A stretch of 64,000 nucleotides of DNA from Apostichopus japonicus (Eukaryota > Echinodermata > Holothuroidea > Aspidochirotida > Stichopodidae): NCBI RefSeq assembly GCF_037975245.1, contig NC_092564.1, positions 1,691,984-1,755,983 on the forward strand, read 5' to 3'. The position numbers and the translations under genes were made by a program. Below are positions 179-51,000 of this stretch, piece after piece. Position 1 is the stretch's first letter. Each line of letters starts with the position of its first letter. A model generated the notes under the pieces. It had not been told where the DNA came from and searched no databases. It saw only the letters and a list, made by a program, of their open reading frames with translations.

Positions 179-3100
179 GTGAAAAGACATTTTATCCATA
201 AAGAGTTTGCTTGTCAGACATTTGTTTGACAAGTCTTCATATGTATTATGAAGTATGTACTCTTGTCGTTGTATTAGATAATTATTTTATTTACAAATAA
301 ATTCATCACTCCCCAAATGAAGAATTTAATGCTGTTAAGAAAATGATTTATTCAGATGCAAGTTGTTTGATATCAAGATTATTTAATACCCTTCCAGCTA
401 AGCTGCAATTGTTTCACATTTTGTCACTCAGAATTCATCATGAGAAAAAAGATGAACAGAAAGCGTCTCATCGTCAAGAGAGAGAACTTCAGCATCAACT
501 GTTGTTGTCTAGAAGGAGAGCAATCAGGGAGACAAGACAGAGACAGCTGGATATGATCGCTGCAATGCATCCAGGTACTGTATAAGTATTACAATGATAC
601 AGTAGACTGGATGCATCCAGGTACTATATTAGTATAACAGTCATACAAGTAGACTGGATTCATCCATGTACTGTATTAGTATTACAATCATACCAATAGA
701 CTGGATGCATCCAGGTACCGTAAGATGAATTATTATTAGTATTAAAATCATACAGTAGACTGGATGCATCCAGGTACTGTAAGATTAATTATTATTAGTA
801 TGATAGTCATACAAGTAGACTGGATGCATCCAGGTACTGTACTAACTGTAAGATGAATTATTATTAGTATTACAATCATACAGTAGACTGGATGCATCCA
901 GGTACTATATAAGTATAACAGTCATACAAGTAGACTGGATTCATCCAGGTACTGTATTAGTATTACAATCATACCAATAGACTGGATGCATCCAGGTACC
1001 GTAAGATGAATTATTATTAGTATTAAAATCATACAGTAAACTGGATGCATCCAGGTACTGTACTAACTGTAAGATGAATTATTATTAGTATTACAATCAT
1101 ACAAGTAGGCTGGATGCATCCAGGTTCTATATTAGTATAACAGTCATACAAGTAGACTGGATTCATCCAGGTACTGTATTAGTATTACAATCATACAAGT
1201 AGACTGGATGCATCCAGGTACTGTATTAGTATAACAATCATACAAGTAGACTGGATGCATCCAGGTACTGTATTAGTATAACAATCATACCAATAGACTG
1301 GATACATCCAGGTACTGTACTGACTGTAGGATGAATTATTATTAGTATTAGTCATACAGTAGACTGGATGCATCCAGGTACTATACTAACTGTAAGATGA
1401 ATTATTATTAGTATTACAATCATACAGTAGGCTGGATGCATCCAGGTTCTATATTAGTATAACAGTCATACAAGTAGACTGGATTCATCCAGGTACTGTA
1501 TTAGTATTACAATCATACAAGTAGACTGGATGCATCCAGGTACTGTATTAGTATAACAATCATACCAATAGACTGGATACATCCAGGTACTGTACTGACT
1601 GTAGGATGAATTATTATTAGTATTAGTCATACAGTAGACTGGATGCATCCAGGTACTGTAAGATGAATGAGAGTACAATCATACACAGGAAGAGTTCAAT
1701 CATACACTGGTTGATTAGAATCATACACCGTTAGGCTAAACGTATGCACAAGTCATAGGACCATGCACAGACTAGGACCATACCCATATACTTGCATCAT
1801 ACAATTGGGCTAGGTAATGTGTATAGTTAGACAAAGTGACAAACCAACCAGACTTGATGGTGACCAGATTGGCAGACACCTTACAGCAAATAGCATCAGA
1901 GGGTGTTTGAGAATCACAAAGAAAGTCATTTTATTTTGACACACAGAATCAGTCAATGTAGAGAAACTAGTTTGTACACAATGATGACCTTCAAAGTTAA
2001 AAGAGCTTAATCACTTGAAAACAATGGCTAGTGACAAACTTGGATTATTCTTTCACTCTTCAGCTGAAATAGACAAGTACTTGGAAATATCACAAATTCA
2101 AGCTGCGGTTAAACTACAGGCAATTTGGCGAGGAGTTCTGGAAAGGAGGAAGTTAGGACTCAGAAAAGCAACAGCACAGCAAGTTAGAGCTGCCATAACC
2201 ATCCAAAGACATGTGAGTCTTTATTTATTCATTGCCAAGGTAGCAATGGGAGATGCCTCACACAGCAGGGGTGGGGTTATGGGAGGGGGGGGAAGGGGGA
2301 TTCTTTATTATTGTTTTACTGAAATCCCTCAGTGTTTTATATTTATATATTCAAGATCACATGATAGATGTGATGACAGATGACGAGCTGTCTCGTTACT
2401 GATATATAGCTTTTAGAGAACATACTTGTATAGTTAATACTACTACAGTATAGTAAATGTGTCCAAACATCATGTGATATTCATTATTATATGATTATAA
2501 TATGATTAATTTATTATATGATTATTGGTGGTGTCACACAGAGAGAGGTTATAGGTATATTACTACATTGTTATTCCTAATTGTCCATTACTGAAACAGT
2601 CCTGGTTTGCACAACACAAAATAATATGCATTCCAACTTTCCAGGCAAATTTACCTTTCATAGGTCTAGCATTGTAGAGGAAGTTAACCTGTGAACCTTT
2701 AGGTAGAAAATCAAAGAGAGTAGAGTGCTATAGTGTTGGAGTGAATGCCTGATTCCTCTCATCTTTGTCTTCAGATCCGAAGATACCTGAAGAGACAGGA
2801 TGAGAAGAGGAAGGAACCGATGATGTGGCAGCCTCCTCCAGGACTTACAGACGAGAGGCGGGTAGAACTCCAGTCGATGATTGAGGAGAAGAGAACTGCT
2901 AAACCTGTGAGTCATGATAAAGTATTGCGACAGGGAAATATGTTAAATCTATGCACAGAAGAGAGGAGAAGAACCTGTTGATTGAGATCACTGAGAAATT
3001 GGTTCAAAGAGTGTTAATTGACACATAGTGTTCTCAATAATAGTTTATTCATAACATTATTAGTTTACATGACTATTATTTTCACACTGATATGCCAAAG

Positions 3101-6100
3101 CATTGATGATTTGGCCAGTTAACAATAATTGAGCTAGGGAACAGTAATATGAAAACACTGGTTCATAATCCTGTGTCACTAACATTGTTCTGGTATGCAC
3201 CATGTAACAGCCATCCTCCACCACCCCCCCCCCCCCCCCCCGCCTTCCCCTAAAGCTACTCTCCTAAACCTAAACAGATATTTACTAATAAATACAATGG
3301 ATATTGGAAATATTCTTTGTTTTTGCCATAATTCAGTCCAAAGTATCAGAAAGAGCAGACCAAGAAGACCTGCATCTCAAAGCCCAGGATGCCTGGATGC
3401 ACTACCTCTCCAGGAGACTGGTGATGAAGAAAGGTTACCAGAGGAGAGAGGCTCTTCTCGCCTCTCTAGAGATGGATGCCGATCTTTTAGCAAGTAAGAA
3501 TATGTATTTCATCTGAGTACAGAGTATCAATAAGATTGAGAACAGGGGAGTTTGATGAAAATATGTCTTAGGATTTGATACCATTAGCTCTACCTTTGTC
3601 TATTGACTAATCTTTTTGCAAGTAAGATTATATATTTCATCTGAGTACAGAATATTGATAAGATTGAGAATAGGGGAGCTGGATGAAAATATGTCTTAGG
3701 GTTTGAAACCATTGGCTCTACCTTTGTCTATCAACAGTCCAATATTAGCCTGGTTACTGGCAAACAATGCAAAATTTGCTATGGTTCTAGTGAAAAGGGT
3801 TGGGAGTACATAGGAGGGAGGGCGTTATAATACTCATCTGCTCGTTGTTAAGTACTGAAATAGTAGTCTATACAGCTGTAGTAGAACTGAACAAGTATTC
3901 AGCCAGCAGGGTCCAGGGCCTTGGCATTGAGGTGTAGTATTTTATGAACCTCTAAAATGTATCATGACTTAAATACTTTATGAAGGTACTGATTACATTT
4001 CACAAATCAATGTAGAAAATGGTTAAAAATATGATTTTGTCACATGATATAAATAAATGACATTTTACCATTCTGGGTTGTATAACTAGGGGCATGAACT
4101 TATCACATGATATTAATAAATGGCATTTAACCATTCTAACTTCTGAGTTGTATAACTAGGGCAGGGGCGTATCCAGGGGGGGCACAACAGGCACGCGCCC
4201 CCCCTATTGGCCGTCACCAAAAAAAAAAAGTTTAGCCAAAAAAAATGAAAAACTTGATGACGACCTTTAAGTGAGATGTCGGTGATCGCTCAACCCCCCC
4301 CCCCTCCCGTATGCTTTATTTTTTGTTTGCCAAAAAAAGGTTCTGGTGAAGTTCGGCGGCATAATAGTTTTAGAAACATAGATGGTAATTGTGTTTGTAT
4401 TATCACTATAAACACTAAGTGACATGCCAGCCATACTAAATTGTGCATTTTGTGTCCATATTTACTGGAAATGTTGCTTATTATTAAGGTCGAAAAATGG
4501 ATCACATATGGCCATGGGCGGCGATCCTGGGGGGGGGAAGGGGGGATATATCCCCCATGAAAATGGGTGGAGGGGATGTAATACACCATATCCCCCCCCC
4601 CCACCAAATGCCAGGGATAAGAATATTTTCATGCCTACATTTATGCATCTTCGTTAATGTTCGGCTCTTTTTTAGCTTCATTTCTCGCCTACCATAAACG
4701 CAGTGCGATCTTTTCAAATAAAGCGTCTTTATAAAGCAAAAATAGTTGACTGTAGGCTTCATTGGCCCTATAACAACAAAATGTATTATTGCGCCCACGG
4801 TATCGATATAGTACATATATGCACCCTCATAGTATTCATATAGGCCCTATAGTAGGCCTACACACGTACATGTTCCCTCGAACAGCTGAGAATCTCATGT
4901 AACCAGGGTAATGCTTAATACACGTTTCACCTGGATGCCCTAGCAATCGGTACATAGGAATGTGACTATGTGTAATTGTGTATTGCATGTGTATAGGCCT
5001 ATAATAGCCTGCATGAGGCCATTTTCTTCATCGAATAATATAAAAGAGCTCTCGAACATTCTAACGTTGCGCCTGAAACAAGATTGACAGGGGCAATTTT
5101 CCCAAAATAACACCCGAAATTAAAAAAAAAAGTATTTTGGATCCTGATTATGAGATATTTCGGACATGACATCCCTATTTTAAAGTTGGGTATATGCCGC
5201 TTGGAAACCTCGGGAAGTGCCGTTTCCGGCCATCTAGAGGGTTTGTTAATCCCAAAATTTTCTGGTACGCTTCGCGCCAACTCATGGTGGCGCTACGCTT
5301 AGATAGTCAACAAGGTCATATCCCCCCCCCACTCGGAGGTACGGATCGCCGCCCATGCATATGGCACCATTTTGCATTTCAGCCCTTCTTCGAAAGCAAA
5401 AATTGTCCACCCCTTCCCTTAGACCCATCCCCCAGGACGGCGATCATTCATGCCTGACGCCCCCCCTATTGGAAAATCCTGGATACGCCCCTGAACTAGG
5501 GGAATGATAGTATCACATGATATCTTTAAATGACAGTTAACCATTCTAAATTCTGAGTTGTATAACTAGGGGAATGATAGTATCACATGATATCTTTAAA
5601 TGACAGTTAACCATTCTAAATTCTTAGTTGTATAACTAGGGGAATGATAGTATCACATGATATCTTTAAATGACAGTTAACCATTCTAAATTCTGAGTTG
5701 TATAACTAGGGGAATGATAGTATCACATGATATCTTTAAATGACAGTTAACCATTCTAAATTCTGAGTTGTATAACTAGGGGAATGATAGTATCACATGA
5801 TATCTTTAAATGACAGTTAACCATTCTAAATTCTGAGTTGTATAACTAGGGGAATGATAGTATCACATGATATCTTTAAATGACAGTTAACCATTCTGGG
5901 TTGTATCAAACTACCTGATAATCTGTAGTTGGATTTCCTTTGTGCTTGGATAAAAGTTGTTATGGATATGCATTTCCATGAAAGAAATAGCATTCTTGTC
6001 TTCATTACACTATGCATTAATTGGTGTTTTATCATATGTACGTACATGTATGATGTAATACCTTTTGGGTCATTGGGATATGGTTTTATTTTTAGGGGAG

Positions 6101-7045: not shown

Positions 7046-7270
7046 GCTTTTCTTGATTAGAGAATAGAATACAAAGAGAAAGGGAAAGTAATGATAGTAC
7101 CCACCCTGTTTATTGTATGGAAAGGACTCTTCACACATCAACATAAGTGTTAAATAACTTACATTGTAATTCCTTTGATAGTTCTGTTGAAAAGATCACA
7201 TGTCAGTGTTAAGTATACTAATGTCAACGTTTGTGATCATTGTTAACCTTTTATAGAATGTGTGAAGCCT

Positions 7271-7736
7271 AAATGGTGATGTTGATAGCATGAAATCATA
7301 AATGGTGATGTTGATAGCATGAAATCATAAATGGTGATGTTGATAGCATGAAATCATAAATGGTGATGTTGATAGCATGAAATCATAAATGGTGATGTTA
7401 ATAGCATGAAATCATAAATGGTGATGTTGATAGCATGAAATCATAAATGGTGATGATGATAGCATGAAATCATTAATGGTGATGTTGATAGCATGAAATC
7501 ATAAATGGTGATGTTGATAGCATGAAATCATAAATGGTGATGTTGATAGCTTGAGTCATAAATGGTGATGTTGATAGCATGAAATCATAAATGGTGATGT
7601 TGATAGCATGAAATCTTAAATGGTGATGTTGATAGCATGAAGTCATAAATGGTGATGTTGATAGCATGAAATCATAAATGGTGATGTTGATAGCATGAAA
7701 TCATGAATGATGATGTTGATAGCATGAAATCAGGCA
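7271..7736 (+). repeat. 29-bp tandem array, about 16 copies
   Basis: The unit is AAATGGTGATGTTGATAGCA plus TGAAATCAT, repeated head to tail with few mismatches (for example GTTAATAG and GATGATAG variants, and one shortened unit near 7550). It lies downstream of the IQCB1 stop, probably within the 3' UTR if the polyadenylation signal at 7942 is used. Confidence 0.95.
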
Positions 7737-27062: not shown

Positions 27063-30000
27063 GTGAGTTCCATTTAAAAAGGATAATTCAAATGGTTTTT
27101 TCACATGTGGCAACTTTTAAGCCAAGCTGGAAATTTGCCAAACACAGTGGTGCAAAGATATAAAAGATACAAAATGTGGTAATTGTGTATTCTCATAATT
27201 AACAGATGTATACAAATTTTAAATCTGCTTGCTATGATTACTAACATTTCATATAAAAAGATCAACCAAAATTCCGGGCGAATTTCGCGAAAATTTTTCT
27301 AACTCCGAAAAACACAGTGAGACACTTTGTGGGTAGAAAAATGAAGGAAGGTCATTAGGGCCAGTGAGGGTGTACAGTGTTAAAAGATTACCAGGGCATT
27401 CTAGACACGGTAGAATGTGGTGCTAAGGTTGTGGGGAGACAGGTAAGCAGGTCACTCGTAAATATATAAACCAGTAAGTTTCATCATATTCAACTTCCCG
27501 ATGGATGGATGGTCACTCTAGTAAGTTGTCCCGTGATTGTTAGGGATGCTCTTAAAGACGTAATTCTTGGATGTCCTGAGCCTTGATCCGATCTTGTACT
27601 TTGTGTCCAGCAGTGATCAGCCACATTTGGTATTTACTTCGCTCCTTGATTACCTGTCTCATCACAACCTCAGCACTCTAGTTCCAACTTGCCTAGAGAG
27701 AACTGGTAACCTTTTAACAGAGTACGCCCTCTATGAGCAGTCACTATCGATGTAAGCCCCTCCTTGTTCCTCCTTTTCAACCCTCCTCCTCATTAGAACT
27801 ATATTTCATGGACTCCTCAGTCTAGCTGAGTACTGTAGCTGTTGTACTTGTGTCCATCAATGGTCAACCATGGGTTATCAGAACAATCTTTGCTATCATT
27901 ACAGTACACAGTAGCAGTAGATACTTTAAGCTAAGAGGTTTAATAGACTGGTACAGTCAATGTTTGTTTGTTGGATTAAATTTAAAAGAAGATCACATGT
28001 ATCTACTGCTGTGCAGTAACTTGTGTGGCACCAGTGCTGGATTCTTGGGTAATTTCAGCTTAAACAGCCTTTCCAATTAAACCTTAAAGCAGCTTAACAT
28101 AATGATAGTGACTAGAGAATAATAAAGTAAGATTAGAATAACTGTTGTTTATGTCTGGTTTTGTAGGCAATAGAGTATGGAGGTAGGAGGATTAATTATA
28201 CTGCAGAAAGCTTAGTGAATCAGAATGAGTAATTGTAAAATAATAGTGATACTGGCAAGCTGCCACAAAAATCACTTTGTGTTGATAAGATCACATAATT
28301 GATATTTCATGCTGGATATTGTACAGTACATGATACAGTACAAATTGAAATTCCAAATACATTGTACATAGCAATTGAGCCCATATGGAAAGGTTAGTCG
28401 ATAATTCCTATCGGTGAACATTACAGTTAATGATATGGTATAACGTGTAACTACTTGAAACAGTTTGTAATTTCTATTGTGTTCTACATACAATACAGTA
28501 GGATATTATAGAGCTCAGCACTATTCATGCATGTTTATCTACGGTTATCATCACTCTAGCTGTTTCAAGCTACTATTTATTGTTATTTTGATCTAAAAAT
28601 TATAAAAATTAACTTTGGGTGAACTCTAGGGAACTCTGTATTGAGTCTGAGGATTCTTTTCTGTGTGTACAGTATATACTACTTAGCATAGTTGCATGTG
28701 TGTACAGTAGCATAGTTGAATACCAAATGCAGCAGAATTAACAATAGAAGAGCTGTTTACCTTTCATTTCAAAATGTAACATTTATGAATTTAATCAGCA
28801 TACTATACACTACAATGAGTACATATATGTTTCAGTTAAATCAATGTTTGATGGGTCTTCCATTTTAACATTCATAAAGAGGAGTGTCTGCATGGCCAAA
28901 TTTGACAAAATTCACTGGATCTTTTAAGCTTCCATCAGGTGGTTTTTAATCTTTAAAGTGAGGAAACTGTGCTGAACTGTGTAAGGTTGTCTTACAGTAG
29001 CATGATCATACAGTGCAGTTTGCCATACAGTATTTAGTTATATAGTACAGTAGGTAAAAATATTCGCTAAGTACTGCCATACGGTACTGCAGATCAATGG
29101 GAAATAGTTGCTGCAATTGTTTGGTTCTTCCAATGCCAATCCAGGGGTACAAACCTGGCCATGAATCACCTGTCCTTCACCTGTCATATTTATGTCAAAA
29201 CATAAACTTCACTTTCTGCTCTTAGCACTGCTGACCTTTTGACTCATATTTAACAGCTTTAGTTGTTGGATTAGGCAAAGAGGGAGTTTGTTGTCAAAAC
29301 TTGTCACTACAGTAGTGGGCAGGTCCAAGCTATTTGCACTGTGACGTACGGGACATTTCAGAGACTTAAATGTGTCTAAAAGTTATAAAAAATCTATTTT
29401 CCAGAAACTTTTTCAGGTTTTCATATTTGTTATTGCTGCTACTTTATTACAAACTTATGAAGATTTCCTACACTTGCTTTAATTAGGTCCCATCTTAATT
29501 AATGTACAGTGTGACGTACGGGACCAGAGAATTTTGTGTTTTTTTTGCTAAAGAGCAAAGCTGAAATCGCTCTGAAATTAGGAGGGCAGTGATCAAGCTG
29601 TTATAACTAGTGAATAGCCTAACCTTCCAAGAGCTAAGCTGTAACATATTAGAAAAAAATATGAAGCCATTCCAGTTCAGTGATTACTCAAATGAAAATT
29701 GTCCTGTGACGTACGGGACATGTGACGTACGGGACAATTTGTCCAATAAAAATTGACTATGAAAAGTCATATTTTTATTCCTGAATATACCATAACAAGC
29801 TGATTTCTACATAAAAACATTAATTTGGATATGTCAGAACAATGTCATTGGTAATTTCATGCCATATTTCCTTCTTTCGGGGATCGAAAAGAGCAGTGAC
29901 TGTACTTGTGAGATCATTCCACTACATAAAACATGGAATGCGTAAAGTATAAATCTACTCTACACATTCATCAAATACTCATAACATCAATTCTAGCTTT

Positions 30001-33000
30001 GTTAGACCACAAATGATCCAAGATGCAAGTTTTGGTGCAAAACTGTCTCGGTATATACTGTACAACACTGTATCATACTCCCCACTATTGACCCTGAAGT
30101 TGAAATATGATCCATCCCATTCAAAACATACCAAAATGTCCACAGTAACATCCACATAATGTCCATCTATGAAACTAGTACAACAAAGAAAACTCTATAG
30201 ACCTAATAATGGTTACCAGACCAAATGCTCATAACATCAATTCTAGCTTTGTTAGACCACAAATGATTCAAGATGAAAAGTTTTGATGCAAAACTGTTTT
30301 GGTATATATACTGTACAGCACTGTATCATACTCCCCACTATTGACCCTGAAGTTGAAATATGATCCATCATATTCTACCAAAATGTCCACAGTAACGTCC
30401 ACATAATGTCCATCTATGAAACTAGTACAACAAAGAAAACTCTATAGACCTGATACTGGTTACCAGACCAAATGCTCATAACATCAATTCTAGCTTTGTT
30501 AGACCACAAATGATTCAAGATGCAAGTTTTGGTGCAAAACTGTTTCCGTTGTATACTGTACAGCACTGTATCATACTCCCCACTATTGACCCTAGAGTTG
30601 AAATATGATCCATCATATTCTACCAAAATGTCCACAGTAACGTCCACATAATGTCCATCTATGAAACTAGTACAACAAAGAAAATTATAGACCTAATACT
30701 GGTTACCAGACCAAATACTCATAACATCAATTCTAGCTTTGGTAGACCACAAATGATTCAAGATGCAAAGTTTTGGTGCAAAACTGTTTCCGGTATATAC
30801 TGTACAACACTGTATCATACTCCCCACTATTGACCCTCAAGTTGAAATATGATCCATCATATTCTACCAAAATGTCCACAGTAACGTCCACATAATGTCC
30901 ATCTATGAAACTAGTACAACAAAGAAAACGATAGACCTAATACTGGTTACCAGACCAAATACTCATAACATCAATTCTAGCTTTGTTAGACCACAAATGA
31001 TTCAAGATGCAAAGTTTTTGTGCAAAACTGTTTTGGTATATACTTTACAACACTGTATCATACTCCCCACTATTGACCCTGAAGTTGAAATATGATCCAT
31101 CCCATTCAAAACATATCAAAATGTCCACAGTAACGTCCACATAATGTCCATCTATGAAACTAGTACAACAAAGAAAACTATAGACCTGATACTGGTTACA
31201 AGACCAAATAGTCATAACATCAATTCTAGCTTTGTTAGACCACAAATGATTCAAGATGCAAAGTTTTGGTGCAAAACTGTTTCCGGTATATACTGTACAA
31301 CACTGTATCATATTCCCCACTAGTAAACCCTCATGTTGAAATATGATCCATCCCATTCAAAACATATCAAAATGTCCACAGTAACGTCAATGTAATGTCC
31401 ATCTATGAAACTAGTACAACAAAGAAAACTCTATAGATCTAATACTGATTATTGAACAAACTCATGAGTGTTTGTCCTCTGCAAAAATTGGGCGAGCAAA
31501 ACTCTACACTTGTAACTAAAAATCTCAATGTCTACTATCTAAGTCTGGACACAAGAACATTGTTGCACAGTCATGATAGTCACACTTCACAATAGGCCTA
31601 CGAAATGTTAAAATGCAAACTCAACATTCTTGAAGTTGTCCTCATTCAATGTCAATGTTGAATAGCATTGTAGATGATTTTGTATCCCACACACACACAC
31701 AATTGACTTCCCGATAGTATATTGAACAACACCTGGGATGTTGGTGGTCATCAGTCAATGGTTTATTTGAAGCCATGTTGTGCTCTTCAGGCATGCAGGG
31801 ATTATATGTTGCAACTACCATCTTTCAACAAAATAGATTTGCAAGCATTGAAAGGTTTCCAGTAGAGGTCCCCATTGGAGCCCATGCATGTTTATTATGT
31901 ATAAATACAGGGTTTCCCCCACACTATGTCCCGTACGTCACATTTTGTCCCGTACGTCACATTTTTAATTTTGATAATTAGATTTGCTGTGAATATTTTT
32001 TCAATTTTTTTGGGATGGATTTTGTTGAACAATGTTCTTAATTAGAACTTTACAGAATATCACCAAAAAAAAATTGTTCGTCCATATCAAAACTTGAAAA
32101 AAAGTGCTGAAAATTGTGACGTACGGGACATCAGTATTTGGACACTAGCTAATTAGCATATTTAATTGATGAACCCCCAAACATCATATGTTAAAATTAT
32201 TGGAAGGAAGGGTGTATCATGTCCCACATAAGTTATATTCAATAAGTTCATATTGCTGGCAGGGAAATAGAATTCAAAATGTCCCGTACGTCACGCTGCA
32301 ATTTGAATTTATGCAAATTAGCCGGCTGTAATTGTTCGAATAGGCAAAACAATTAAAAAAAATTATGAAAATCTGAAACTTCAATAATTCAGCTTTAACA
32401 TGACACCACATTTAGGGAGCTTCAGTAAAGTTTGAAATTTGGCTTCTTGGGATACAATAGCTTGGACCTGCCCTAGTTCACAACCCCCAAATATTTTAGA
32501 ATTTAGAAAGTACTGTACCCTTTCTGGACTTGTGTACTTTATTAACTCCACTGACTTGATTCCATTTTAGATTCTATGTTGGAAATAGATTATGGGTGGG
32601 TTGGGAAGGGAGGGTTGGGTTGGGAAGGAAGGGTTGGGTTGGGAAGGGAAGGGCAGGGCAGGGGGGGGGGACGAGCTGCAGTATGTGAGGTGTGAGTTTG
32701 CTTAATACTACATAGTCGGAGTGATTAAAAGAAACCCTGATAGTGTTACATGGATTTGTACCTTAGAAACTTTGCCATTCCCCAAACTGTAAATTTTCAA
32801 CACCTTTTCACTCAACAATGTATTTTCTGGTTTGTTTTCGCAGGTATCTTTGAATGGTTTGGAATGTTTGATATGGATGGTGGATAGGACGCATGAGAAG
32901 TTTAAAGTGTACATTAGCACAGGTAGGTACTGTACCACTACTGTAGCTAAATCTATAGCTAAATCTGTGTTGATCTCTGACATTATTAGTAAAATTAACA

Positions 33001-39000: not shown

Positions 39001-42000
39001 TGAAAACCATGGAGACACTCTTATTGACCTTGCAAAATTGTGAGGGGGGACTGTGGATTGCAAATTAGGCAATGACTATAACACGAATCGCAAAGTCTGT
39101 AATTGCTATTACGGTTAGATTCGTCCAACACCGCAGCATACTAAAACGTACTCTAAGCCGAAGCCAAAGTGAATTAATCAGGTCACACATATGGAGTCTA
39201 TGCATGCTAAGTTCTTCAATACTGCCCTCATTATCTACTGGTAAACATTTCCTAACTGTAGTTTTGATTCATATTTTGATATGAAGTTCAGCTCATTCAT
39301 GCATACTCTTTACTCAGTCATTTCATTTCTCAATCTTATTTTAGGTCCGAGAATCAGCTCAGAATCTTATCCAGAAGTTAATGTCATGTGCTGCATCACC
39401 ACAGGTTTGTTAATTAATTATATGCAATCTTATACCTACCTTCTGAAAGTGTGGTTCCTAACATTGCGTTAACAGGCTAGCACTCATATCTAGGTGTTTT
39501 TTTATATATATTTTTTTTATCACAAAGACCTGTGATATGCATTTATTTTACTTACTGCAGGTCTAATATTCTTACATATTCCCTCCCCCACCCAAAAAAA
39601 AAAAAAAAAAATGTTTACAATAGCAGAGTTAAAAATTATGAAAATCAAAGCGAATTGTAATTAATTAAAACCCACTGATTTTGATGTCATTGCTTACAAA
39701 CCTCAAAACTAATATTCTACTTTGTTTTATTATAGTTTCAGTATGAACTGTAGTTGTGCTTGTTATGGTTACAAAATGATCTAGAATCTACTATTTATAG
39801 GGTATTTTACTCTATCTCCACCTTCATAATTGTGATCCATGAACTTATCAAGCAGATGAAGCTCTGTAAAGCTTGGCTAACAGTGTTTTAGCATGGAGCT
39901 ACTTACAAGCTCACAGCTTTATTCATCCTCATAGTCATATCTCAGATTTTGTGAATGTCTTAAACATGTTCTTAACTTAACCAATAAATTGTTAGAGAAA
40001 TACTGTCTGGAGTGGTTGTCTTCTGGCTGGATAGCTTTTGACATTTAAAGTAATGAATTTACCTGAGCTTCTCTCCAGAGTTCATCCACAGAGAAAACAA
40101 CAATTAGCAGTTGTATCCTGTAATGTGTAATATAATATGAAACATCTTGACAGAAATAGAGAGTGCACAGCAGGAAATGCATACAAACAGAGAATTGACA
40201 TAAACAACATTTAAATGCCCCAAGCTCTCAAATTCAATTTGTCTGCCCAGAATCTAGTCTAGGTGGTAAACTCTGCTCTCGTCAAGCTGTGAGAGGCCTC
40301 CTCGCCGATTTCATTTCCCTCATATGGATAGAATTGATTTTTTTCTTTTTGCCTTAAAATGATCTGATTACAACTTTTGACACATTTGCCTTCTTCATTG
40401 CATATAGTAAGTCAGGCTGAGTCTATTTAGATATATCCTAGAGCTGTATGTATCATATATATCATAGAGCTTTATGTATCATAGAGCATTCTAATAACTG
40501 TTATTACATACACTTTCCATATAATACGTAGGTATACTACCGGTTGACTAGTCACTACAGTGTTTCATCAGTTCAGCTGTAAAAACTCTATGATTGTGAT
40601 GTATACATGTACTTGTAAAAACAGAGAATCATTTAAGAGTTCAAATTTTGTGTAGCAGTTTGGAAGGTTCTAAAGGTTATCAATCATAAAATAGTTTATT
40701 CCCTGTGTCCCCAAACTGCTATACCTGTATATCGCATTACTGCACATATTTGGAAAGCAAGTTGCCTTTTTTTCAACTAGCATTTTGTATTGCGATACTG
40801 GATAAATCATTCCCTGGTAAACACTGTATGGAGATATTTTCTCATGTGTGTGTTTAATATTGAAGAATCTGGATAGAATCAGTTTCAAGGTAGTTAATCA
40901 GCTGCCAATCTGACCAAATATAACCATGTTCAATAATTTAAGCTTACATATAAAGTATGAATCAATTGAAAGTGAAGAATTTAAAGGAGAAATCTATAGC
41001 ATTGATACTATCCTAGATCCTTGTACACACTGGATCATAAACATAAGGAAAGCCTAGATCTACCAACAACATGGCATTTCTTTACTGAATTTATTTAAAT
41101 TCATTTTTAAAAACTTGAAACAAAACCTCTGAAAAAAGCACAAGTACAAAGAATTTAATGGTCTGTGATCGTCTACTCGTTGCCATCAATTCATTCACTT
41201 TCACTCAATGATAGATGACCAATAAAATGAAAAAATTCCAACCTCAACCTACCTGGGCAGTGTTTCATTTTCATTATCAGAAACACAGATCTTGTGTACT
41301 TTTCTTTTTATAATTTGTTGTAATGTATTCTTCATGCAAGTTTGTCATATCGTCGCTACAGTGCAGTCTATATATATACTGTATGAAGACTTCATTAACT
41401 GTGAGTCTAGAACCAATTCCCCTTTTAGGGTAAATATTAAATCAATACATGACTGTGTAGCATCAAATTGTTAAATTGCTCTTGATGTTCACATGGAGAC
41501 AGAGGTAAATGTTAAATGATTCTATTTTTAAGCCGCATTCTCGGATGGTCTCATTCTCTCTCTCTCATCTAATGGTATTTCTCTTCCCTTCTCTTACAGT
41601 ATATCTTTGAGAGGCTCATGAAAGCTTTTTCTCATAAAGCCTGGAGAGTGAGAGAAGAGATACTGCTATGTTTAATCAACACGATCAATATGTGAGTTTG
41701 CTGTACAGTTTGGCCAAATGTTATAATGTTTGAACATACTGTACCGTATATGTATATACAAGAGTCATGCATCGGAATATGTATGTACAGTAAAAGGGTA
41801 TTGCGTAATATACAGTATTACTAGTAGAATAAAGATTCCTCAAGATATAACATTGTTGAAAAAAGCACATCTTTGAATTAGGTTGGTATTTTCCCAAAGT
41901 TGCTGCTGAGTATCACTCAGAGTATGATCGCTCAGAGTAAGATCACTCAGAGTAAGATTACTCAGAGTAACATTGCTCAGAGTAAGATCCTTCAGAGTGA

Positions 42001-45000
42001 GATTGCTCAGTGCAAGGTCGCTCAGAGTAAGATCACCCAGAGTATGATCGCTCAGAGTAAGATCACTCAGAGTAAGATTACTCAGAGTAACATTGCTCAG
42101 AGTAAGATCCTTCAGAGTAAGATTGCTCAGTGCAAGGTCGCTCAGAGTAAGATCACTCAAAGTAAGATTGCTCAGAGTAAGATCCTTCAGAGTATGGTCG
42201 CTCAGAATAAGATGGCTCAGAGTAAGGTCGCTCAGAGTAAGATCACTCATAGTATGATCACTCACAGTAAGATTACTCAGAGTAAGATTGCACATGGAAT
42301 CATTCTCAGCTTTCTTTTCATTCCAATGAAGTTTAACCCTGGAGTATTTAGTGAAGTCCATTCAAATCATGAAATTTTATGGCAAAGAGTCCATTTCATA
42401 CTTAGCAATAAACGCTTTTGAAAGCAAAATTGAAAATTGAAAAGTTGTTTGAGTTTTACTGTCTGAAGTGAAACTTGATTAGTCTGCAGTAGCTAATGAC
42501 ACACGTTGTGATAGAGTTTTGGTATTGAATGCTGTGAGAAGGTGATAAATCATCGCAAATTTTGTTTTAAGCTGTAAGGCAATATATATTTGTAGTTCGA
42601 ACACATTTCAATAATGAATACAGGAATACAAATCTAACAGTCCGAGTGACCCTGTTTGACCCCTAGGATGGGGGAGCCTTCAATGGAAAGGCCAGTATTA
42701 TCAAAAGCTATAGGGATAACCTTGGAAAGAACTTCTTCTTTTAGTACTGCAAGTAATACAAGATGCCATAATAATACTGTAGTATTATATGAATTATAGC
42801 AAGAAAAAAAGGAGACATTGTGTCACAAACCTGAAATTATAATTTATATATTTTGATTTTGGAAAAATAATTCCTTTATCCTCTCTTTGTGATGTGTGTA
42901 ATTTATATTCAAAGGGTTAAAAAAATCACGTTGCTTCATAACATAAACTGACCAGAAATACATACCTGGACATGTCAAAACAAGATTGATAGCTCCCTTA
43001 TTTGGAGTAAAGTTCCTTGTAACCATGTTATACCCACAATGATAAGTACAGTATCTCTCTCATACCGAATTTATGTTGTGCGTATTACTAATTACTGTTT
43101 TGTGTTTCTTGGCAGTAGGATAGGTACAGTATAAACGGTGTTTGCATAGATATACATCTGACATTGTAGTCACTTACTGTTGTACCTATACCACTGCACA
43201 GTCTAGTCTTGATACTGTGGTATTAAGCCAATTAAATCAATATGTTATTGCACTTAGCTCTGTAAATGACCCCAGACTACAATTCACAAGAGAATGCCTG
43301 CAATTGCTTGTAGTTCATTTTAAGATGTCTAACTTATGTCATTTACACCAACCAATTAGTAAAAAATGTAGTTAAGTTCCTCTGACGATGATTTCCTTTG
43401 TATCTACTAGACGACCTATATTTTAGTTCCTCCTGCTCACAATGTTTTTCTAATAACTTAATCCGGGAATCGCTTAGCAGCTTCTTACACCTTTGTAATC
43501 TCTTTTTCGGTTGTTTTCTTTGCATGTTGTCATTACCTACCTTTGCTTGACCATATGTTGAAGTCTTATTGTATTTCCTGTTTTTCTTTTTTTGCAGACA
43601 CGGTGCTGCTTCACTTACCCTGAGCAAGGTAGTACCCTCGATATGCAAGTTGCTAGGTGATCCAAACAGTCAGGTACTAAACATCACGGAAACATCGTAT
43701 CAATTGACCCAAATATAGCCTACTTATATCTCCATGCCCTGTAGGCTCTAAATTGGGTTTAAATTGCCTGGTCATTTTGTGGACTATTCTTCTGAGGTTA
43801 TGCTACACGTGTGGAAGTAATAGATTGATCTTAAAGGGGGGGGGGGAATGAGTCATGGTTTAAATTACTTTGTAATATATTGAAATCTGGTACTTGTCAA
43901 ATTATTTGGGCAAATAATTGGTAACAAGCCTGTCATATTCTGTCTTTTATCTGTTGATACATCAACATGGTCTTGAGGCTTTTAGGCAACTTCTATTTTT
44001 TTTTGACATTTTTCAGGGAGTAGTAATACTCTAGTCAGATACATTTTATCGTTTTATTGGGTAGCAATCAGGGGTTTGATATTCAGGTTTTCAAGATTTG
44101 TTGGCCTAATGGATTGTTTGGCAAGTTGTGGGAGTACACTTGGTCAATGGAACCCACATATTTCACTTTAGGTTGTTGGGTAAGGAAACCATCATTACTA
44201 CAAACGTCAAGATTATTTGAGAATGAAACTCCATGAGGCTAGTATTGATGATGTAAATAGAATTCCAGTGATTTACAAAATTCAGATTCACCCAGCAATC
44301 CTAGAGAAAACAAAAAGAAGAATTATTGACATTTTGAAAGAAGGAAGGAAGGAAGTATAAATTGACCTTTAATGCTGTGGCGTTGTGTCTTGCTCAAGTA
44401 TTGTGCAGAAAATATTTGCTCTTTGATGCTTTCACTGTTCTATAATCCATCACTCATTACTGAAATTCCTCTATTAAAATTTTCATTCTCCCAGTACCAC
44501 TCTCAGTGTCTTAGGTTATCAAAATATTGGGAGATTTTCCTCCAAAGAACTCTTTTAATTTGAATGTTGCCTGAAGCAATGTTTCCCATCTTGTGAAACA
44601 TGAAAAGACAAATGTTTGTAAAGACAACATGACTGTTCTCATATCTGAAGCATCCCCCAGCTGTTTTGTATTATTTCATTCAGGTACGTGATACTGCCAT
44701 CAACACTCTGGTGGAGATTTACAGGCACGTCGGTGAGAAAGTTCGTATTGATCTCGGGAAGAAGGGTATACCAAGCTCCAGGTATGTAAATATTTCTTGT
44801 CTCGTTCACTTCAGTGTGGTTGTGCCAAATCTAACATCCCTCTCCTCTCATAGCATGTTCACTCTGAGCATATCGTAGCATGATGCATTGATGAAACACC
44901 TTTGCTAAGATAATAATAATTATAATAATACATAATTTTTATATAGCGCCAAACAAACTATGAAATAATTCTTGTAGCGCTTAACAAAAAATAACAATTA

Positions 45001-48000: not shown

Positions 48001-51000
48001 AACATTGATGTTTTCCTGCTGTATTTATTTTGTATAAAATTCTTTGAGTATATGATCCCAGTAAATGAAGAACCACTCTGAATGAATACCATTACTTCAT
48101 GTCACCTTGGCAACGAGTGGAAAGATCTGTTGCTTTGTGAGCTAGTCTCTCCCTCGTCTCTTCATATAGATTTTAGTAAGGGATGCATGTATACCAATAA
48201 TACACACACACACACACACACTAAGTCAACTGGTCATGTGCTTGATTTATTTAATTTTACTGCATAGCCTTTAACCAGTATATCCCTCCTATCAAGACAG
48301 TACATATTAGCCTAATAGCCATAGCCTTTAACAAGTGTAATCCTCATATCAAGACAGTACATATTAGTCTAATAGCCATAGCCTTTAACCAGTGTATCCC
48401 TCATATCAAGAGAGTACATATTAGTCTAATAGCCATAGCCTTAAACCAGTGTATCCCTCATATCAAGACAGTACATATTAGCCTAATAGCCATAGCCTTT
48501 AACCAGTATATCCCTCCTATCAAGACAGTACATATTAGCCTAATAGCCATAGCCTTTAACAAGTGTAATCCTCATATCAAGACAGTACATATTGGTCTAA
48601 TAGCCATAGCCTTTAACCAGTGTATCCCTCATATCAAGACAGTACATATTAGTCTAATAGCCATAGCCTTTAACAAGTGTAATCCTCATATCAAGACAGT
48701 ACATATTAGCCTAATAGCCATAGCCTTTAACCAGTATATCCCTCATATCAAGACAGTACATATTAGCCTAATAGCCATAGCCTTTAACAAGTGTAATCCT
48801 CATATCAAGACAGTACATATTAGCCCAACAAATAGCCACACTTTATGTCTGACTTTTGAAGACCTCATTAAATATGCAATCATAAAAAAATAACAAATTT
48901 GTGTCAAATTTTGCAGGTATGCCCAGCAGATTCAGGGGCTGCCAGTAGTTTCTGTGTGGTATGACAGAATAGCATAGGCAGCTGTGTACAATACATGAGA
49001 CTGTTTCAAACCCTGTACAGCAACATGTTAACACAGTGTGTGTGTGTGTTTGTCTTGTTGCAGAGATGGGGTCTTATAGTAAATTCTTGTAATCAATTCA
49101 TTTTTCGGTGTGTGTCTTTTCCCACTAGGGAATTGAATAATTTTCGTATGGATTTGCTCATTGTCCGTTTTTTCAGAATCACAAAGAAAAGTATTTACTG
49201 TTAATAAAATGCCTGAAGCCAATTGGTGAAGTCTCTCTCCCTAGATGTCAACAATATATCTTCTCTTAGGCCCAGATAGCCAGTCAAGGAAGTTGAATGA
49301 GAGATACTTCCACCTGCGTTCCGTAATACATTAATATAACTTGCTACCATGACCGGTTGGTAAGGAAGGTGTTCGTTAGGGAGACCTTGTTGATTTCAGA
49401 GTTCAAGTGATGTGTTGTAAGAATCATTGCAACAACCGTGTACAATTCAAACCTCCTGGATTGTAATGTCATAAAAACATCTCCGACTTAACTGATGTAC
49501 TTCACTCGGTTAATGGATTTCTTTCTCCTGGATATATTCTGTTGGAGTTCGAAAATTTACGAACGCTGCATGATCGGTGGATGCCATCTTGCATTTGATG
49601 TTTTACACGTTTAATTGCAATCTTTTTCAAAACAGTCTGTTAAAACCACCAGAAGTGAATCAATGCTGGTTTCATTACGAAGTGAAACTGTTGAATGCAC
49701 TTTGAGGACGTTGAGACACATGTACGAAAGATAACTGATGACGTTGTCATCGTTGAGTTGAACGTGTCTACATTGTTGGATCTCGAAATGAATTTGTAAC
49801 ATTTTGTGCCTTCTTTTAAGAGGTGATCAGTGACAGTTAGATTTGAGGAAAACATCTTACCGTTTTGTACAGAAGGACTTTTGACTCCATGTTGCGTGAC
49901 ATTGACTCTACCTTCAAATATATCACTGTTGATAGTGTTGTAGGTGCATCTAGCTGCATTCAATGCAACTGAATACTTGGATTGCTAACATAATCAAAAC
50001 ACAAACTTCAGAGAGGAATGCTGATAGGTACTTTTTCAGGAGATGAACAGTTCTACGTCCACTGCGGCTGTTATCTGTGATTGAGAAGGAACTCAGAGTT
50101 ATAGTACCATTAACCTCGTACTAGCTATTTACTTACTTCTTTGATACTATTGTTCTTTACTTGTCAAAAAAGGGTTAAAAGGATTGAGATTTAGGAACTA
50201 GAAGGAGTCTGTTTTTTTTTATCCAAATTCTAATCCCCACAAATATCTAAAACGAAAAATTGTGTATAATTTATATACAGTACAAGTTACAAGAAAGAAT
50301 AACATTCTCTATTTAATATCACATTAATGTGAAAGGATGTTAGTAAATGTTACAAGTAACAGTACATCTGTGATCGTCTCATAATGTAAACCAACCAAAG
50401 CTCCTTTCTCGTCCTATCACCTGAGGGAGTTCAGGCACAAAACATCACTTTAAAAGTTGTCTGGTGGTATGTTTGTTATCATTGTGTTGAATGTTTGCCT
50501 AGGTCACAGGTTGCCATGATTCAGGCAGAAGCCTTCTATCTTAAAGATCAAGATTTGAACTTGGCTATTTGACAAGTGAATAGGAAACAGAAATAAAATG
50601 CTAATACCCACCCACTGTGAGAAGAACAGACATCACCCCCCCCACATGGAATAATAAGCTGCCACTGAAAATCTTCTGTTAAAGCGCTTAGGTAGTGTGA
50701 AGTTGTTTCATTTTGCGACAACATTTTTGGTAAAACTCAGAGGTGGCCCAATCGGTCTGTTGATAACTCTACTGTCATGGATGGGGAGGATTTGAAGGAA
50801 TTGGAGCTTGCTTTTCCTGAATTTGAAGCAGATGTTTCTATAATTGTCGACTGTTTGAGGAGAAATAGACACAGGGCAATTGCTGTTGAGAGTGACGGAC
50901 AAACAATCTCTTTGAGTCCTGATTCTGGTCTGGAGAGTGTTCAAGAGGAGGATGAATTGACTTCAAGTGAGCCTCGGACTTTTCTCCTCCTCATTGGTTG

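What the first reader, a model, noticed from the sequence alone, without database searches (positions are those of the whole stretch)
29313..32477. Unrecognised transposon-like element: 18-bp TIRs, recurrent GTGACGTACGGGACA, internal satellite
The element has exact terminal inverted repeats, a candidate TAGT duplication and no coding capacity. Its arms contain eight copies of one 15-bp motif, mostly pointing inward (forward on the left, reverse on the right, with one exception at 32116). Repeated arm motifs of this kind usually mark transposase-binding sites. The middle is a six-unit ~245-bp satellite. Tandem-repeat cores are known in Helitron-related elements, but those lack TIRs and target duplications. 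The combination does not fit a family I can name.
Basis: partly seen in the sequence, partly recalled or inferred. Interest (0 to 1): 0.75.

Follow-up and report, generated by a model that had tools for sequence, protein, structure and literature searches.

The report
Non-coding jumping element with satellite core
This stretch is one copy of a recently mobile, non-coding DNA transposon family with a repeated 16-letter motif and a tandem-repeat core; it is a real family with no name that I could find, but the enzyme that moves it was not found.

Summary
Window 29317-32473 is a 3157-bp element with exact 18-bp terminal inverted repeats (TIRs) between TAGT copies. The host genome holds 204 exact TIR ends (control 0); they form 84 pairs, 80 of them 1.77-3.43 kb long. 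Perfect 4-bp target duplications flank 36 of 45 two-ended copies read (shifted controls 0-1 of 45), and one copy inside a 51-bp tandem array shows the empty site. Three 2912-bp copies with different duplications differ by 3-5 bases, so movement was recent. The motif is a 16-bp imperfect palindrome. Variants shared between copies touch 1 of 112 motif sites against 137 of 1531 other arm sites; it is also better conserved than its surroundings in old relatives. It therefore behaves like a transposase recognition site; binding itself is untested. Satellite units number 1-7 per copy. Best reading: a non-autonomous cut-and-paste DNA transposon moved in trans. No autonomous partner was found. A P-type transposase beside one copy belongs to a separate P element, and a coding insert in another is a nested element with CACTG ends. 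The superfamily stays unassigned: Sola1 and Academ could not be tested, and no repeat library could be searched. I file it as a new member of a known kind.

The parts
29313..29316 (.). left copy of the 4-bp target site duplication, TAGT
   Evidence: sequence; 36 of 45 two-ended copies have a perfect 4-bp duplication
29317..29334 (+). left terminal inverted repeat GGGCAGGTCCAAGCTATT
   Evidence: 204 exact copies in the genome, reversed-pattern control 0
29317..29971 (+). left arm, non-coding, with four motif copies
   Evidence: 30 left arms aligned
29341..29355 (+). motif copy 1
   Evidence: exact
29511..29525 (+). motif copy 2, one mismatch at its last base
29706..29720 (+). motif copy 3
   Evidence: exact
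29722..29736 (+). motif copy 4, 16 bp after copy 3
   Evidence: exact
29972..31451 (+). internal satellite, six units of about 245 bp
   Evidence: TRF; 1-7 units in 35 copies counted
31452..32473 (+). right arm, non-coding, with four motif copies
   Evidence: 27 right arms aligned
31927..31941 (-). motif copy 5
   Evidence: exact
31946..31960 (-). motif copy 6, 19 bp after copy 5
   Evidence: exact
32116..32130 (+). motif copy 7, opposite orientation to its neighbours
   Evidence: exact
32280..32294 (-). motif copy 8
   Evidence: exact
32456..32473 (-). right terminal inverted repeat
   Evidence: 18 of 18 bases complementary to the left one
32474..32477 (.). right copy of the target site duplication, TAGT
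   Evidence: sequence

Best explanation
The region is one copy of a young, non-autonomous cut-and-paste (class II, TIR) DNA transposon family. A transposase made elsewhere recognises the 18-bp ends together with several copies of a 16-bp subterminal motif, and inserts the element at roughly palindromic targets (YRn|TNNA|nYR) with a 4-bp stagger that becomes the 4-bp duplication. Shown: the ends, the duplication, an empty site, recent movement, and conservation of motif and ends in lineages that transposed. Inferred: that the conserved motif is bound by the transposase (its near-palindromic form suggests a dimer), that the enzyme is of the DDE type, and that the internal satellite is a passenger whose unit number changes by unequal exchange or repair.
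For: 204 exact TIR ends, control 0 (all places listed); 84 pairs, 80 of them 1770-3425 bp. Perfect 4-bp duplication in 36 of 45 two-ended copies, 0-1 of 45 at shifted positions. Empty site: joined flanks of the C8:5182203 copy align to uninterrupted units of its 51-bp array, 97% over 301 columns, no gap at the junction. Three 2912-bp copies on C4, C6 and C19 differ by 3, 4 and 5 bases and carry different duplications. Shared variants: 1 of 112 motif sites, 137 of 1531 other non-TIR arm sites. Ten old-relative alignments: motif differs at 94 of 501 positions, rest at 1477 of 4190, TIR at 22 of 180 (summed). 636 exact 16-mers in the genome, control 0.
Against: No transposase was found. Private (mostly post-insertion) non-CpG changes are also fewer in the motif, 7 in 79 sites against 308 in 1508, which selection at transposition alone does not predict. 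Only 5 of 10 old-relative rows show the motif significantly better conserved on their own. 9 of 45 two-ended rows lack a perfect duplication: 3 with one mismatch, 6 with two or more. The target consensus was read after inspection of the same 36 copies it is scored on.
Confidence: 0.85

Rival explanations
1. It is a non-autonomous derivative of the P-superfamily element whose transposase gene lies next to one copy on C19.
For: A 779-aa frame with P-type domains (PF21787 E 1.9e-30, PF21788 E 3.6e-14) and upstream THAP exons ends about 0.4 kb from a truncated copy of the element. Galileo, a P-superfamily element, has several transposase binding sites in its arms (PMC3688188, passages).
Against: The two relatives of that gene that I read (L073, L074) have no such ends, motif or arm similarity. 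L074 has its own 31-bp perfect TIR beginning CAGAGCCG, and that terminus matches the 5' side of the C19 gene. P elements make 7-8 bp duplications (recalled), not 4.
Confidence: 0.04
2. The autonomous element is the 13.2-kb copy on C14, which has both exact TIRs, a TACA duplication and long open frames, and the short copies are its deletion derivatives.
For: 817-aa and 308-aa frames lie between the TIRs; perfect TACA duplication.
Against: The coding block is bounded by its own inverted repeat CACTGTAAAAAAT / ATTTTTTACAGTG with a 2-bp TG duplication inside the left arm, so it reads as a nested CACTA-like insertion. The CACTA label rests on ends and duplication: the frame has only a sub-threshold DUF4218 match (E 0.07).
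Confidence: 0.03
3. The motif is a binding site for a host protein (for example a transcription factor, or one that keeps CpGs unmethylated) and is conserved for expression or protection rather than for transposition.
For: Private non-CpG changes are also reduced in the motif (7 in 79 sites against 308 in 1508).
Against: The copies sampled have no gene to express (for the window copy). Private changes at CpG sites do not differ significantly (12 of 33 motif sites, 13 of 23 others, p 0.18), while shared ones do (1 of 33 against 17 of 23, p 1.6e-8).
Confidence: 0.12
4. It is a Helitron-like element with a central tandem array.
For: Central tandem arrays are known in Drosophila DINE elements (PMC9659126, passages).
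Against: Exact TIRs and a 4-bp duplication in 36 of 45 copies, with an empty site that shows both.
Confidence: 0.01

Closest known systems
Tetris / DAIBAM of Drosophila virilis (PMC4079207, passages)
   Same: Non-coding DNA transposon with inverted ends and internal tandem repeats of about 220 bp; autonomous partner not found there either.
   Different: Foldback type: the tandem repeats lie in the long TIRs; duplications 8-10 bp. Here the TIR is 18 bp, the array is central and the duplication is 4 bp.
MITEs carrying satellites: Xmix/Xstir and miDNA4 of Xenopus (PMC9659126, passages)
   Same: Short-TIR non-autonomous elements with tandem repeats riding inside.
   Different: Mariner-type or unassigned, about 400 bp being typical for MITEs; here 1.8-3.4 kb with a multi-copy arm motif and 4-bp duplications.
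Galileo, P superfamily (PMC3688188, passages)
   Same: Several recognition sites for one transposase spread through the arms, shown there by footprinting and EMSA.
   Different: Long TIRs, THAP/P transposase; no link to that superfamily found here.
Sola1 and Academ
   Same: 4-bp (Academ 3-4 bp) duplications, recalled; the known homes that I could not exclude.
   Different: End sequences and transposases could not be compared; the AcademH paper is not held.

Membership tests
Non-autonomous cut-and-paste TIR DNA transposon | same inverted ends in many copies | tested here: met
   204 exact TIR ends, control 0
Non-autonomous cut-and-paste TIR DNA transposon | fixed-length target site duplication and empty site | tested here: met
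   36 of 45 perfect 4-bp; empty site in a 51-bp array
Non-autonomous cut-and-paste TIR DNA transposon | no transposase of its own | tested here: met
   longest frame 103 aa, no Pfam family over cut-off, for the window copy
Non-autonomous cut-and-paste TIR DNA transposon | autonomous partner with the same ends | tested here: inconclusive
   none among the 84 pairs by length and the 31 of 36 unpaired exact ends read; the tool warns that absence in G000 is no proof
Helitron | no TIR, no target duplication | tested here: not met
piggyBac / Kolobok / Sola3 | TTAA duplication | tested here: not met
   TTAA in 0 of 36 perfect duplications; the TTAA rule for these three is recalled
Sola2 | AWWT duplication (PMC3627910, passages) | tested here: not met
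   2 of 36 fit AWWT
Ginger1 / Ginger2 | TGTNR ends; Ginger1 CCGG or CCGT duplications (PMC2836005, passages) | tested here: not met
   ends GGGCA; 0 of 36 duplications of the Ginger1 kind
PHIS, NuwaI group | GGG ends and 3-bp CWG duplications (PMC4482050, passages) | tested here: not met
   GGG ends fit, but the duplication is 4 bp without CWG
CACTA/EnSpm-Mirage-Chapaev-Transib | CA..TG ends in most cases (PMC12730594, passages) | tested here: not met
   ends GGGCA..TGCCC
P superfamily | transposase between the same ends; 7-8 bp duplication (recalled) | tested here: not met
   4-bp duplications; the nearby P gene belongs to an element with other ends
Sola1, Academ | superfamily transposase and end sequences | not testable with these tools
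   no transposase in hand, no repeat library; AcademH paper not held

The most novel reading that the evidence does not exclude
The family is the visible trace of a transposase lineage not yet in any superfamily: GGGCAGG..CCTGCCC ends, a 4-bp duplication at YRn|TNNA|nYR, and a multi-site code of a 16-bp palindromic motif at conserved positions in both arms. It has persisted in this genome for long (relatives about 35% diverged keep the ends and motif positions) and was active recently.
Probability: 0.2. Interest if true: 0.65.

Novelty: new member of a known kind. Interest (0 to 1): 0.45.

Why it matters
Variants inherited through transposition almost never touch the 16-bp motif while private ones do more often, so candidate transposition sites can be read from copies alone, without the enzyme. 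The copies also form a ladder of 1-7 satellite units, a snapshot of a satellite changing length inside a mobile vehicle. If the missing transposase proves new, it would add a superfamily.

Tried and rejected
Autonomous partner. (1) C14 13.2-kb copy: nested insertion with CACTG ends. (2) The four pairs over 5 kb (5447, 6452, 6582, 13166 bp) carry extra blocks that interrupt known arm or satellite sequence; I read these as nested insertions, for the 5447-bp one without further evidence. (3) P transposase on C19: looked like the partner, rejected after reading two relatives. (4) Motif with A or G before it: 5 hits, 4 in this family and 1 lone. (5) TIR variants with a non-G sixth base: 8 hits, 7 at ends of copies of this family (one of them, C19:14771756, placed by position only) and C20:15305163, a match in another tandem repeat. 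(6) Six-frame Pfam scans of four unpaired ends with unknown interiors: L040 and L064 nothing; L046 reverse transcriptase; L062 exons like sorting nexin 17/31, plus a 14-residue SWIM match in a tandem repeat, with other weak matches. (7) DUF7869, tried from memory as a transposase domain: present in the genome, but the one piece read (L076) has neither these ends nor the motif.

Other. A single ancestral satellite unit in the old relatives: scores 29.5-32.5 against shuffle maxima 35.5-36, so not shown. Satellite growth with time: rho -0.64 in 30 copies, but -0.28 (p 0.20) in the 23 not chosen by length; no claim made. Rfam: 0 matches. Folding of motif and TIR: nothing beyond shuffles. Empty sites among fetched pieces: none for 36 joined flanks. 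End and motif strings in papers: 2 papers hold an end string, both on other subjects by title; the motif is in none. Further paper searches for families with these features gave no match to the ends (listings, and passages of the papers named).

Full report
Observation. The element proper is 29317-32473 (3157 bp), flanked by TAGT. The two 18-bp TIRs are identical, eight motif copies lie in the arms, and six satellite units of about 245 bp fill 29972-31451. The longest stop-to-stop frame overlapping it is 103 aa, and no Pfam family passes its cut-off in six frames (DUF6275 stays below it).

Copies. A search with the left arm scored 40 long matches; 25 of these 40 begin exactly at GGGC. The exact 18-mer occurs 204 times: 133 preceded by A (all listed) and 71 by another base. 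With up to one mismatch there are 234. The reversed-pattern control is 0 in each. Pairing the 204 places by hand gives 84 pairs and 36 unpaired ends. 80 pairs are 1770-3425 bp, and lengths bunch in steps near 245 bp; four are longer (5447, 6452, 6582, 13166 bp) and carry extra blocks read as nested insertions. I read 28 of the 84 pairs, counting the window, and fetched DNA inward of 31 of the 36 unpaired ends (2.4-3.9 kb each). The other five lie at copies seen.

Insertion. Of 45 rows with two recognisable ends, 36 have a perfect 4-bp duplication, 3 have one mismatch and 6 have two or more; shifting the comparison outward by 1-8 bases gives 0 or 1 of 45. One of the six failures, L036, is a chance pairing. 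Rows left out before the count: one-ended loci, two duplicates of a locus, and the second halves of two joined loci. In element orientation the duplications have T at base 1 in 29 of 36 and A at base 4 in 20 of 36, and flank positions 2 and 3 are mirror-symmetric in purines and pyrimidines, giving YRn|TNNA|nYR. Those flank positions were chosen after inspection (110 of 144, nominal p 1.5e-10). The copy at C8:5182203 sits in a 51-bp tandem array. Its flanks, joined over one TATA, align to uninterrupted units at 97% over 301 columns, with two gaps elsewhere and none at the junction. So there the ends and the 4-bp duplication are read directly.

Recency. L007, L011 and L013 (C4, C6, C19), each 2912 bp, differ by 3, 4 and 5 bases without indels and have different duplications. 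Median pairwise divergence is 2.9% in 30 left arms and 3.2% in 27 right arms; these copies were chosen partly for similarity to the window copy. A transposase acted on this family recently.

The motif. With its neighbouring base it reads TGTGACGTACGGGACA, 12 of 16 positions self-complementary. The genome holds 636 exact copies, control 0. Of the 100 places listed, 98 lie in paired or fetched copies of this family by my reading, and 2 lie just past the piece fetched for another copy. In the aligned arms, variants shared by two or more copies affect 1 of 112 motif sites and 137 of 1531 other non-TIR sites (Fisher p 0.0011); private variants number 19 and 321; the shared-to-private contrast has p 0.012. 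At CpG sites alone, shared variants hit 1 of 33 motif sites against 17 of 23 others (p 1.6e-8), and private ones 12 of 33 against 13 of 23 (p 0.18). Against a pure transposition filter, private non-CpG changes are also fewer in the motif (7 in 79 sites, 308 in 1508). So some protection after insertion, or lineages sampled once, cannot be excluded. These tests treat sites as independent.

Old relatives. A search with L041 found copies about 70% identical (260 candidates, 40 scored). Eight were read (L041, L047, L051-L056); ten arm alignments were used, five per arm, leaving out L055, the left arms of L051 and L054, and the right arms of L053 and L056. Motif positions differ at 94 of 501, other positions at 1477 of 4190 and TIR positions at 22 of 180 (summed). 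Five of the ten rows are significant alone and five are not. L041 and L047 keep the left TIR exactly. The simplest reading is that copies with damaged motifs or ends do not transpose, as expected of transposase recognition sites. Galileo is a biochemical precedent for several binding sites in the arms (PMC3688188, passages).

The satellite. Anchor counts give 1-7 units in 35 copies; the sixth anchor of L005 lies 1421 bp away and outside the array. The array is inherited with the element: 82 of 125 units have their nearest relative at the same position from the left in another copy, and 8 of 125 in their own copy. L041 and L047 show no such array. Tandem repeats inside non-autonomous TIR elements are known (PMC9659126 and PMC4079207, passages), so this part is not new in kind.

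The missing partner. A P-type transposase gene beside one copy on C19 looked like the answer. The two relatives that I read lack these ends, motif and arms. One of them, on C21, has its own 31-bp TIR beginning CAGAGCCG, and that terminus matches the 5' side of the C19 gene. The coding insert of the C14 copy has CACTG ends of its own and a 2-bp duplication. Other leads failed. A missing match in G000 is no proof of absence. The superfamily therefore stays open: the tested families fail on ends or duplications, and Sola1 and Academ could not be tested.

Verdict. A real, recently mobile family of a known kind. The search of paper texts for its end and motif strings found no report of it, but no repeat library could be searched, so it may be catalogued there. 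The host organism was not identified.

Noticed in passing
L074 1332-8347 (G000 C21:1208331-1215346): A P-superfamily element with a 31-bp perfect TIR and a 789-aa open frame 69% identical to the C19 transposase.
   Followed up: partly
L031 about 679 to L032 about 1468 (G000 C14 about 11921205-11931868): A 10.7-kb insertion with 13-bp inverted ends CACTGTAAAAAAT, a TG duplication and frames of 817 and 308 aa without a Pfam family over its cut-off.
   Followed up: partly
L021 about 610-3302, L063 1-2087, L036 up to about 2998: One dispersed repeat (AACAAGAGCCCAAGGGCACTGTGG... ending in a GGTTCCTT..AAGGAACC hairpin) interrupts copies of the family; in L021 and L063 it lies within about 20 bp of the paired motif.
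   Followed up: partly
G000 C17:24708225-24709854, C16:42322458-42324087 and others: DUF7869 genes in several exons with equal scores at two loci, and 18 places with an identically scoring 65-aa frame: a probable recently mobile family. In L076 one lies near an array of 93-bp repeats.
   Followed up: partly
G000 C16:30367457-30370130: A copy with two exact right ends about 0.75 kb apart: a compound or partly duplicated copy.
   Followed up: no
G000 C19:10287800-10290430 and C19:10313800-10316460: 2631 bases identical at two places about 26 kb apart: a very recent duplication or an assembly duplicate.
   Followed up: partly
window 565-1657, 5494-5897, 7270-7732, 41912-42288, 48263-48825: Several tandem arrays (periods 47, 70, 29, 15 and 57 bp) make the window rich in minisatellites.
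   Followed up: no
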